From Luteimonas panaciterrae (GTDB lineage Bacteria > Pseudomonadota > Gammaproteobacteria > Xanthomonadales > Xanthomonadaceae), in NCBI RefSeq assembly GCF_020511115.1, contig NZ_JAJAVH010000007.1, positions 1 to 64,000 on the forward strand: DNA of 64,000 nt. The letters run 5' to 3'. Below the pieces are notes generated by a model. It worked only from the letters and a program-made list of their open reading frames with translations. It made no database searches and had not been told where the DNA came from. The first letter of the stretch is position 1; every line of letters begins with the position of its first letter. Shown piece by piece: positions 42,321 to 45,430 of the stretch. A program made the position numbers and the translations under genes.

Positions 42321-43082
42321 CTATTCGCGTGCGATTCTCGCCATCCGCTGCGCATCGGCCAGGATGCCGCGTAGCAGCCGCACCTCGCGTTCATCGAGAT
42401 CGCTGCGCAGGAACAGCCTGCGTAGCTTGCGCATCGCCGACTCCGGTGCCCTGCCCTTGTGGAAATCGATGTCGTCCAGGGTTTGCGCCAACTGATCGAA
42501 GAATCCTTCCAATTGCGTGTGACTGGCCGGGGAGCCGGCGTGTGCGCCGTCCTCCCGCTGCGGAATCTCACCCGCGGAGAGCATCGCAAGCCGCAACTCG
42601 TAGGTCAGCACCTGCACGGCCGCGGCGAGATTGAGCGAGCCGTAATCCGGATTCGAAGGGATATGCACGGCCGCATGGCAGAGCTGCAATTCCTCGTTTT
42701 CCAGACCGGTGCGTTCACGCCCGAACAACAACGCCACCTCACCGCCCTCCCGCGCCACGGCGAGCATGCGCGCGGCCGCATCGCGCGGCATCAGCTCCTG
42801 CAACTGCACGCGCCGGCTGCGCGCCGTGCAACCGAGTACCAGACGGCAATCGGCCACCGCCTCGGCCAGCGCCTCGTGACGCTGCGCCGACTCGAGCACG
42901 TCGCCGGCACCGGCCGCCATGGCCTCGGCGTCTGCATGCGGGAATCGCTGCGGCGCCACAAGTGACAGCCGGTGCAGGCCCATCGTCTTCATCGCGCGCG
43001 CCGCCGAGCCGATGTTGCCGGGATGCTGGGTGCCCACCAGCACGATGCGGATGCGGGAGAACGGTGTCGTATCGGGATTCAT
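42321..43082 (-). CDS. trmJ: tRNA (cytidine/uridine-2'-O-)-methyltransferase TrmJ
   Basis: A 253-residue SPOUT methyltransferase. Signature segments are RIVLVGTQHPGNIGSAARAMKT at the N-terminus, LLFGRERTGLENEELQLC and IPSNPDYGSLNLAAAVQVLTYEL, and a C-terminal helical part. TrmJ methylates the ribose at position 32 in the tRNA anticodon loop. The ATG is at 43080-43082. The frame continues upstream, but that part runs into a structured repeat element which begins only 9 bases before the ATG. No ribosome binding site is seen in the intervening bases. suhB is divergent on the other side of the element. Confidence 0.93.
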   Translation of the reverse strand: MNPDTTPFSRIRIVLVGTQHPGNIGSAARAMKTMGLHRLSLVAPQRFPHADAEAMAAGAGDVLESAQRHEALAEAVADCRLVLGCTARSRRVQLQELMPRDAAARMLAVAREGGEVALLFGRERTGLENEELQLCHAAVHIPSNPDYGSLNLAAAVQVLTYELRLAMLSAGEIPQREDGAHAGSPASHTQLEGFFDQLAQTLDDIDFHKGRAPESAMRKLRRLFLRSDLDEREVRLLRGILADAQRMARIARE

Positions 43083-43091
43083 GGTGACAGG

Positions 43092-43351
43092 GCGTGCCGG
43101 TATGGGTGGAACAGGCCGCGCCGGGCCTGAGGGTGTGCGAGGCAAGGAAGAGTGAGGGCGCGTATGCCGATACGCAACTGAGCGATGACGTGGCATCGCG
43201 TACCCTCAGGCCCGGCCCTTCGGGTTGCTTGGCAATGGCCGCCAGCCGGCGCCGCGAAGCTTGATCTTGCTTCCGCGAGGCACTGCGCCGCACAACACCA
43301 CCTGACGGCCATTGCCAAGCAACGCGGCCTATTCCACCCATACCGGCACGC
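43092..43351. repeat. Structured 260-bp element with nested inverted repeats (multi-branch junction)
   Basis: Outer arms at 43092-43120 and 43323-43351 are 29 bases each and complementary except for one C-A mismatch. Directly inside the left arm is a 14-bp perfect stem (43121-43134 with 43202-43215). Directly inside the right arm is a 17-bp perfect stem (43225-43241 with 43306-43322). The nine bases between the two inner stems read CCCTTCGGG, itself a 3-bp hairpin. The loops hold more stems: GCGTAT/ATACGC (43160-43175), GCGATG/CATCGC (43182-43199), CGGCGC (43247-43252) with GCGCCG (43285-43290), and inside it a bulged CGCGAAGC/GCTTCCGCG. It may be a miniature mobile element with terminal inverted repeats or a folded RNA. 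It fills the space between trmJ and suhB. Confidence 0.75.
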
Positions 43352-43354
43352 GCT

Positions 43355-43432: not shown

Positions 43433-44260
43433 ATGCAAAAACCTGCTGTCAACGTAATGATCAAGGCGGCGCGCGCCGGCGGCAATGTCCTACTACGGAA
43501 CATGCACCGGCTGGATGCGCTCAACGTGGTTGAGAAGGATCGCATGGACTACGCCAGCGAGGTCGATCGCCTGGCCGAGGCCGAGATCATCAAGGAACTC
43601 AAGCGCGCCAACCCCGAGTACACCATCCTCGGCGAGGAAGGCGGCATCCAGAAGAGCAATCGCGGCCCAAGCCGCTATACCTGGGTGATCGACCCGCTCG
43701 ACGGCACCAGCAACTACCTGCACGGCATCCCGCACTGGTGCGTCTCGATCGCGCTGTGCGAGGGCCCCGACCCGCTGCACGCGGTGATCTTCGACCCGCT
43801 GCGCAACGAACTCTTCACTGCGACCCGCGGCGCCGGCACGCAACTCAACGAACGTCGCGTCCGCGTGTCCGAACGCAAGGACCTGAACGGCGCGATGCTG
43901 ATCACCGGCTTTCCGCCGCGCGAGCGCAAGCGCGTCTCCGCTCATCTCAAATGCGTGGATGCCCTGCTCACCGAAGCGGAAGACATCCGCCGCACGGGCT
44001 CGGCTGCGCTCGATCTTGCCTACGTCGCCTGCGGGCGGAGCGATGGTTATTTCGAAGCTGGCGTACAGCCTTGGGATATTGCCGCCGGCATTCTGCTGGT
44101 GCGTGAGGCCGGTGGGCGCGTTTGTGACTTCCGTGGTTCCAGCACCGGGCCGGTGCATATCGAGAGCGGACCGCGGCAGTTGATCGCCGGCAATGTCAAG
44201 ATTGTTGAGCCGTTGCAGAAGGCGATTGTGTCTTCGGGGTATTTGCAGGCGTTTTCCTGA
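43433..44260 (+). CDS. suhB: Inositol-1-monophosphatase SuhB
   Basis: A 275-residue member of the inositol monophosphatase family. The metal sites are [21 protein letters not shown] and [20 protein letters not shown]. In E. coli SuhB also joins the rRNA antitermination complex. The start [20 protein letters not shown] is typical for the family. It is divergent from trmJ, with the structured element between them. The end is followed by a strong terminator. Confidence 0.95.
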
Positions 44261-44295
44261 CGCTATTAAAAACTGAAGCATTTCGTCTAGAAGCA

Positions 44296-44330
44296 AAAGC
44301 GTTTCGCCCCTTTTGGGCGAAACGCTTTTG
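44296..44330. terminator. Terminator after suhB
   Basis: AAAAGCGTTTCGCCC, loop CTTTT, GGGCGAAACGCTTTT: a 15-bp perfect stem with T-runs on either strand, 35 bases after the suhB stop. It can work in both directions, also for lysR coming from the right. Confidence 0.9.
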
Positions 44331-44358
44331 ATCTTCAAAGACAAGGCAAAGACGCTGG

Positions 44359-44485
44359 ATTCCCGCCTTCGCGGGAATGACGAGCAAAAGCAAAAGCCAA
44401 ATGGATCCCAGCTTTCGCTGGGACGACGGCAAGCGGAAGGCTGGATGACCAGCCATACGGCTGTTAAAAACCCGGCTTCCGCCGG
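44359..44485. repeat. Cluster of three REP-like palindromes
   Basis: Three hairpins stand in a row between suhB and the LysR gene. ATTCCCGC-CTTC-GCGGGAAT is at 44359-44378, TCCCAGC-TTTC-GCTGGGA at 44406-44423 and CCGGC-TTCC-GCCGG at 44472-44485. Each is followed by a related tail: GACGAGCAAAA, GACGACGGCAAG and, after four more bases, GACGAGCAAAAA. The second and third have different stems with compensating changes on both arms, so the folding rather than the exact sequence is kept. Confidence 0.75.
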
Positions 44486-44518
44486 AATGACGAGCAAAAA
44501 CAACAACGACAGCAGCCC

Positions 44519-45430
44519 CTACCCCCTCTCCCACGGCGGCTCATCCCCCAACCTCTCCGCAAGAAAATCCACAAACGCACTCACCCGCCTAGGCACCATC
44601 CGCCGCTGCGGCATCACCGCATAAATCCCTGTCTCCGTGATCGGATACTCCGGAAGTACCGGCTTCAACCGCCCGCTGCGCAGATCCTCGTGCACATGCC
44701 AGTACGAGTGGATCGCGATCCCCAAATCCGCCACCGCCGCATCACGCAATGCTTCGCCGTAATTGCATTCGAAGCGGCCCTGCACCCGCACTTCGATCTC
44801 GCGTCCGTCGTGATCATGCAGGCGCCATAGATCCTGCCGCCCGTCGCGCCCGACCAGCAGGATGCAGTCGTGATCGACGAGATCCGCAGGTGTCTTTGGC
44901 GTCCCACGTTTGCGCAGATATCCTGGAGATGCGCACAACACGCGCCGGTTCGCGGCCAGCCTGCGCGCCACCAGCGTGGAATCATCGAGCGCGCCGATCC
45001 GGATCGCCAGGTCGAAGCCGGAGCCGACCAGATCGGTCACGCGATCGTCCAGATTCAGACTGACCCGCAACGCCGGGTGCAGCGCCAGGAATTCCGGCAG
45101 CAGCGGCGAGATGTACTGCCGCCCGAACGATGCCGAGGCGGTGACCCGCAGCGTCCCCGCCACGGCGGAACCTGCCCGGCGCAGGTTGCCCGCGAGCGCT
45201 TCGAATTCGTCGACGAGGGCGCGCCCCTGCTCCGCCAGCACCAGCCCCTCGGGCGTCGCATGCAGCCGGCGCGTGGTCCGGTGCAACAGACGCGTGCCCA
45301 GATCCTGCTCCAGCCGCTTCAGACGCTGGCTGGCGACCGCCGCCGACAAGTCCAGGCTGCGGGCGGCGGCGCTGATCGAGCCGAGGTCGAGCACGCGCAG
45401 GAACAGGGCGAGGTCGCCGATCCGGTCCAT
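44519..45430 (-). CDS. LysR family transcriptional regulator
   Basis: A 303-residue regulator. The N-terminal winged helix-turn-helix (residues 1-60: LALFLRVLDLGSISAAARSL, SAAVASQRLKRLEQDLGTRL, LLHRTTRRL) is followed by a LysR substrate domain (about 90-295: GTLRVTASASFGRQYISPLLPEFLA, GSGFDLAIRIGALDDSTLVA). The type is that of the large group beside oxidoreductases and exporters in proteobacteria. The ATG at 45428-45430 is chosen from the family; the frame is open upstream. It is divergent from an MFS exporter gene, with 96 bases between starts, and probably controls it. Confidence 0.92.
   Translation of the reverse strand: MDRIGDLALFLRVLDLGSISAAARSLDLSAAVASQRLKRLEQDLGTRLLHRTTRRLHATPEGLVLAEQGRALVDEFEALAGNLRRAGSAVAGTLRVTASASFGRQYISPLLPEFLALHPALRVSLNLDDRVTDLVGSGFDLAIRIGALDDSTLVARRLAANRRVLCASPGYLRKRGTPKTPADLVDHDCILLVGRDGRQDLWRLHDHDGREIEVRVQGRFECNYGEALRDAAVADLGIAIHSYWHVHEDLRSGRLKPVLPEYPITETGIYAVMPQRRMVPRRVSAFVDFLAERLGDEPPWERG

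What the first reader, a model, noticed from the sequence alone, without database searches (positions are those of the whole stretch)
43092..43351. Cloverleaf-like folded element filling the trmJ-suhB divergent spacer
Sequence shows: 29-bp outer arms (one mismatch), directly abutting a 14-bp perfect stem on the left and a 17-bp perfect stem on the right, with a CCCTTCGGG mini-hairpin between them and at least three more hairpins in the loops. No base is left unpaired at either outer junction. Such closure is more than a simple MITE needs and looks like a folded RNA or a hairpin-forming mobile DNA. The element starts 9 bases before the trmJ ATG, in place of a normal leader, and ends four bases before a likely suhB -10. 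It may be a regulatory leader, a noncoding RNA, or a nonautonomous element moved by a transposase in trans. No target-site duplication was seen.
Basis: partly seen in the sequence, partly recalled or inferred. Interest (0 to 1): 0.75.

Follow-up and report, generated by a model that had tools for sequence, protein, structure and literature searches.

The report
Mobile cloverleaf DNA element family
The folded stretch between two genes is one copy of a small jumping DNA element, found in many bacteria of one order, that keeps its folded shape while its letters change and shares its end sequences with known jumping genes.

Summary
The fold is real: a 266-bp element at 43089-43354. It is mobile. 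Nine further places in the same genome hold copies, and 80 of 80 relatives read lack it in the trmJ-suhB spacer.

A model of its left hairpin matches 93 of 397 genomes of the order (30 of 98 genera). Loops are conserved; stems differ between copies but stay paired: 95 pairs, 77 changed on both sides, 95.6% of cells paired against 73.5% shuffled.

In two subtypes the outer 16-18 bases match terminal repeats of two kinds of IS5-family insertion sequences. Ten young copies in one genome all follow CT; nine precede AG. I read it as a nonautonomous (MITE-like) element moved in trans by IS5-family transposases.

In 8 same-site pairs stems changed no more slowly than loops (44 single, 2 double changes); 13 different-site pairs show 88 single and 37 double. 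So folding seems needed for spreading rather than host regulation, though two same-site pairs left out show double changes. The mobiliser of most copies, and whether RNA or DNA folds, are unknown.

The parts
43089..43354 (.). Whole element, 266 bp, one copy of the mobile cloverleaf family
   Evidence: Arms and folds; alignment with 36 other copies; absent from relatives' spacers
43089..43120 (+). Left outer arm, 32 nt; its outer part corresponds to the terminal repeat
   Evidence: in other subtypes the outer 16-18 nt equal IS5-family terminal repeats. No IS with this copy's own end was found
43323..43354 (-). Right outer arm, 32 nt, pairs with the left arm (mismatches at 43091/43352 and 43112/43331)
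43121..43215 (+). Left hairpin, 95 nt, with the conserved loop AAGGAAGAG..GAGCGATGACG
   Evidence: 95 nt in 35 of 37 representatives; scored by covariance model R1 at 43121-43215
43216..43224 (+). Mini hairpin CCCTTCGGG at the junction
43225..43322 (+). Right hairpin with conserved inner sequence
42321..43082 (-). TrmJ-family gene; its ATG is 6 bp from the element (neighbour, not part)
43433..44260 (+). suhB-like gene (neighbour, not part)

Best explanation
It is a nonautonomous transposable element (MITE-like) moved in trans by IS5-family transposases. Shown: it has further copies in the genome and is missing from the same spacer in every relative read; the ends of two subtypes equal IS5-family terminal repeats; young copies sit at CT|AG; stems covary while loops stay fixed. 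Inferred: the transposase binds the outer 16-18 bp of each arm, cuts there and joins the element at a YTAR-like site, probably doubling TA or TNA. Also inferred: the inner stems and loops must fold (extruded DNA, single-stranded DNA or RNA) at some step of spreading, so that mostly well-folded copies leave descendants. The window copy is one resident insertion.
For: Nine further places in the genome. Spacer of 350 bp here, 73-181 bp in 80 of 80 relatives. In G035 an 857-bp unit with an IS5-family transposase in pieces (DUF4096, DDE_Tnp_1) has the ends of the AGA subtype; IS5 relatives on plasmids have the same or similar ends with TAA or TTA beside them. For the GGG subtype, an Acidovorax unit with an annotated IS5 transposase opens with 17 identical bases plus CT. 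Ten young copies: CT left 10 of 10, AG right 9 of 10. Covariation. Same-site against different-site changes.
Against: No mobiliser found where young GGG-type copies are numerous: PF13340 in 5 of 12 and PF01609 in 0 of 8 genomes searched, and the IS of G338 and G320 whose ends could be read have other ends. A direct-repeat test shows no target duplication (it cannot see an invariant TA). At 3 of 13 compared sites 3-5 target bases were replaced, which simple insertion does not explain. Exact 18-19-nt end matches have E 0.9-3 each. No end-matching IS was found for the window copy's own arms.
Confidence: 0.76

Rival explanations
1. A structured noncoding RNA that is also mobile: the transcript folds into the cloverleaf and its conserved internal loops bind a protein or act in its spread, for instance through an RNA copy.
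For: 95 pairs, 77 with both-side changes; unpaired columns more conserved than paired (0.82 against 0.75). In the upper left stem G-T mismatch events exceed A-C, 56 to 10, as expected for RNA of the + strand.
Against: The right stem leans the other way (22 G-T, 53 A-C) and the outer arms show no lean (48, 50). No Rfam family at its cut-off. Ends match DNA transposon repeats. No transcript data.
Confidence: 0.15
2. A single-stranded DNA element moved by Y1 (REP/RAYT-like) transposases that cut at CT.
For: CT left of the element at 50 of 110 sites and no detectable target duplication; TnpA-REP cuts at a CT dinucleotide (passages of PMC8266576).
Against: 17 of 73 element-bearing genomes show no Y1 match, 106 of 395 overall, so no association; 0 of 20 Y1 neighbourhoods read hold the element; ends match IS5-family repeats instead.
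Confidence: 0.05
3. A conserved regulatory leader of trmJ or suhB.
For: It lies 6 bp before the trmJ ATG and fills most of the spacer.
Against: 80 of 80 relatives read lack it; other copies lie beside other sequences and some inside reading frames; no promoter-like or terminator-like site.
Confidence: 0.03
4. The stems stay paired by a mutation process (template switching that copies one arm onto the other), not by selection.
For: At site L226 the right flank beside the element differs between genomes and in some becomes complementary to the left flank; one same-site pair, L171/L218, shows 4 both-side and 3 one-side arm changes by my hand count on the printed arms.
Against: 8 disjoint same-site pairs show 2 double and 44 single changes, stem rate equal to loop rate.
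Confidence: 0.2

Closest known systems
IS5-family insertion sequences (ISStma16-like and the Acidovorax type)
   Same: Same outermost 16-18 bases in two subtypes; TA/TNA-like flanks; similar target
   Different: The element carries no gene, is about 267 bp, and arm positions beyond about 18 do not match the IS
Prokaryotic MITEs in general (review PMC10969869, passages seen)
   Same: Small, noncoding, terminal inverted repeats, mostly near gene ends, stable predicted folds
   Different: Here the interior is the conserved part in many genera and covaries pair by pair, while the ends differ between subtypes; G+C-rich
REP/REPIN elements with RAYT (PMC8266576, passages seen; PMC3116915 listing only)
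   Same: Palindromic, dispersed, CT next to the ends
   Different: Length 267 bp with a four-way junction; no association with Y1 genes
Rfam structured RNA families
   Same: Conserved loops with covarying stems
   Different: No family at its cut-off; best matches up to E 10 are far below cut-offs and mostly microRNA models

Membership tests
MITE derived from an IS5-family element | Multicopy, dispersed, with empty sites in relatives | tested here: met
MITE derived from an IS5-family element | Terminal inverted repeats shared with an autonomous IS | tested here: met
   Met for the AGA subtype and one GGG end type; not found for the window copy's own ends
MITE derived from an IS5-family element | Target duplication as made by the parent (TA or TNA) | tested here: inconclusive
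   CT|AG at 9 of 10 young copies fits a doubled TA or a split CTAG; direct-repeat test without signal; 3 of 13 sites show replaced bases
MITE derived from an IS5-family element | Transposed by the parent's transposase | not testable with these tools
   Needs an assay
REP/RAYT system | Y1 transposase gene associated with the repeats | tested here: not met
   17 of 73 element genomes without a Y1 match against 106 of 395 overall; 0 of 20 neighbourhoods
Structured noncoding RNA | Base-pair covariation | tested here: met
   (the structure was derived from the same alignment)
Structured noncoding RNA | One strand favoured by wobble pairs | tested here: inconclusive
   Stems disagree
Structured noncoding RNA | Transcript | not testable with these tools
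   No expression data

The most novel reading that the evidence does not exclude
A transposon satellite whose spread requires a specific four-way folded nucleic acid: its core is a structured RNA or extruded DNA that recruits a host or transposase function, while its ends are exchangeable, so that it shifts between different IS5-family transposases. It would be a folded parasite with its own evolutionary identity through a whole order, not a decayed insertion sequence.
Probability: 0.3. Interest if true: 0.85.

Novelty: new variant of a known kind. Interest (0 to 1): 0.62.

Why it matters
MITEs are usually seen as debris that keeps only the ends of its parent. Here the interior is the conserved part, with pair-by-pair covariation on 77 of 95 pairs, and the ends vary. 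The contrast between same-site and different-site copies can separate selection for spreading from selection for host use, and makes it testable whether transposition can depend on a folded core. Genomes with many such stems are also prone to mistaken small-RNA or terminator annotation.

Tried and rejected
RAYT/Y1 mobilisation: no association, 0 of 20 neighbourhoods. Long autonomous unit by terminal pattern: in G289 and G338 no convergent pair at kilobase distance among the 54 listed matches; in G014, G028, G000, G402 and G136 none recognised (where I looked at part of the unpaired ends); in G035 found. PF13340 in 5 of 12 genomes, PF01609 in 0 of 8 (PF01609 was not searched in G338 or G320). 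Window element in plasmids: no match; a G435 copy: one Xanthomonas sacchari plasmid. Phage records: no match for a g26 copy; exact loop pattern in viral contigs: none. Strand test: contradictory. Stop-codon placement: 63 of 122 TAG-making sides are open in that frame against 48 and 29 in the other frames, suggestive only. Literature: searches list nothing that describes this family; there I saw titles and abstract starts, plus passages of PMC8266576 and PMC10969869; the library is open-licence only. The script stopped with an error after printing the results used here.

Rows dropped: one search skipped 11 of 116 copies; one search set aside 45 places (cut by contig ends, partial or decayed) and kept 145; one search used 96 of these; A1 uses 37 of 39 clusters. 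Against my reading: the looser same-site set (17 pairs) has 98 single and 19 double changes, 14 of the 19 from L191/L259, whose flanks match only 40 of 60; it also holds L190/L254, two places of one genome that share an IS on the right. The stricter, disjoint set leaves these out. L171/L218 (same flanks, not in either set because of its ends and length) shows double changes too. Also mended there: nine, not ten, further places in the genome.

Full report
Observation. Inverted arms at 43089-43120 and 43323-43354 are 94% complementary; left, right and mini hairpins abut them. The folding energy is 12 standard deviations below shuffles.

Mobility. A DNA search of the genome itself finds nine further distinct places (E 2e-59 to 8e-8), leaving aside one 28-nt hit and the element's own arms. 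Of 341 relatives found by the TrmJ protein, the best 80 were kept; in 80 of 80 the divergent spacer is 73-181 bp, against 350 bp here, so none can hold the element. The nearest, Luteimonas aquatica (L058), reads GGGGAC AAA TGGTAAACTG where the window has GGTGAC, element, TGGTAAACTG. So this copy is an insertion.

Family. By DNA, 12 of 61 genomes matched, all in the window's genus, and 73 of 395 in the family, in 25 of 54 genera, with two candidates scored per genome. The covariance model R1 of the left hairpin, built from 37 copies, matches 93 of 397 genomes of the order at E up to 1e-5, in 30 of 98 genera, with strict filters and at most ten candidates scored per genome. A second family (f12) gives many strong hits; those in f7 and f11 are weak.

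Anatomy. Of 145 arm-set copies, 90 are 265-268 bp long and 58 exactly 267; shorter kinds exist, such as 185-186 bp. In an earlier set of 105, the first two bases are A (93) and G (102), the last two C (101) and T (97). The left hairpin is 95 nt in 35 of 37 representatives. Unpaired columns are more conserved than paired ones (0.82 against 0.75 mean top frequency, 96 copies). On one representative per cluster (37 copies), 95 pairs are predicted and 77 keep pairing through changes on both sides. 95.6% of 3497 cells pair against 73.5% after shuffling, 761 cells changed on both sides against 211, and slid structures pair at 32-43%. The structure was derived from the same alignment, which favours it; shuffles also ignore relatedness. 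The margin is still very large.

Ends, AGA subtype. In G035 58 places match AGARCCTGTTCACGATC within two mismatches, among them copies of 185-186 bp. Such ends also bound an 857-bp unit, L429 661-1517, one end with one difference. It holds DUF4096 and DDE_Tnp_1 pieces of an IS5-family transposase in different frames; L405 is a second, partial one. Of six IS5 relatives fetched from plasmids, L481 has the 17-mer exactly at both ends and the other five have variants of it; four have TAA or TTA on both sides.

Ends, GGG subtype. A 34-nt arm with CT before it returned 29 plasmid records. Among the 15 listed, most match only the first 18-19 letters (CT plus 16-17 element bases), exactly, on Acinetobacter, Crinalium and Acidovorax; E is 0.9-3, so single hits prove nothing. 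But in the Acidovorax record the match opens an 877-bp unit with an annotated IS5 transposase 50 bp inside and a far end matching 18 of 20. Two Acinetobacter records have far ends matching 14 and 17 of 20 and frames that look to me like the same transposase (not searched). For Embleya and Crinalium no far end was found. Beyond about 18 nt the arms no longer match the IS, yet arm positions 19-31 covary as strongly as the rest.

Target. Ten copies of G435 with near-identical arms have CT on the left in 10 and AG on the right in 9. Among 110 distinct sites, CT left occurs at 50, AG right at 45, both at 29. At 13 sites compared with other genomes, 6 fit a clean split at CT|AG, CT|GA or AT|AG, allowing a base change there (L255/L258, L259, L256, L263, L228, L267); 1 shows exchanged bases (L172); 3 show replacement of 3-5 bases (L183, L186, L176/L262); 1 is ambiguous (L242); 2 carry remnants of the element elsewhere (L188, L226). 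Which state is ancestral was not tested with a tree, so some 'empty' CTAG sites may be scars of lost copies. At site L226 the full copy of G347 stands against remnants of about 170, 91, 68, 36 and 36 bp and one empty site in six other genomes.

Selection. In 8 disjoint same-site pairs, stems changed at 3.3% per side and unpaired columns at 3.5%, with 44 single and 2 double changes. In 13 disjoint different-site pairs of up to 6% loop divergence, stems changed at 6.9% against 2.7%, with 88 single and 37 double changes (5.6 expected if sides were independent; Fisher p 0.0003 for double against single). Double changes lie in all main stems: 16 in arm positions 1-18, 9 in 19-32, 6 in the left and 6 in the right stem. 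I read this as near-neutral decay of resident copies with pairing constraint along mobile lineages. Caveats: exchange of arms or cores by recombination between copies could mimic it, above all in L195/L185 (8 double changes); the looser set has 19 double changes, 14 of them in the doubtful pair L191/L259; and the same-site pair L171/L218, outside both sets, shows 4 both-side and 3 one-side arm changes by my hand count.

RNA or DNA. Mismatch events in the outer arms show no strand preference (48 G-T, 50 A-C); the upper left stem leans one way (56, 10) and the right stem the other (22, 53). Clusters share ancestry, so events are not independent. I do not decide.

Verdict. A mobile, nonautonomous, IS5-type element with an unusually conserved folded core: a new variant of a known kind. 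The searches of the held library list no description, which does not prove absence from print.

Noticed in passing
window 44196-44534, minus strand frames: Translations downstream of suhB contain repeated peptides such as VIPAKAGIQ and FPRRRESS, which I recall as the read-through of ordinary short REP palindromes.
   Followed up: no
G338 copies L190 and L254, right flanks: A different IS5-type IS (ends CTAG, then GCTGTATCGACATTCA) sits directly at the right end of two copies, as if inserted into the CTAG at the element's end.
   Followed up: partly
G266, at least ten places listed: Ten listed Y1 transposase matches in one genome (10 of 31 candidates scored) each carry one in-frame TAG, as if a disabled or recoded copy had multiplied.
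   Followed up: no
G347 L226 site and orthologous places L354-L359: One insertion site shows full, several shortened and empty states in seven genomes, a natural deletion series.
   Followed up: partly
L306 1501-1556 and L320 1501-1600 (G289): Very short hairpins of 56 and 100 bp with the same ends as the element exist.
   Followed up: partly
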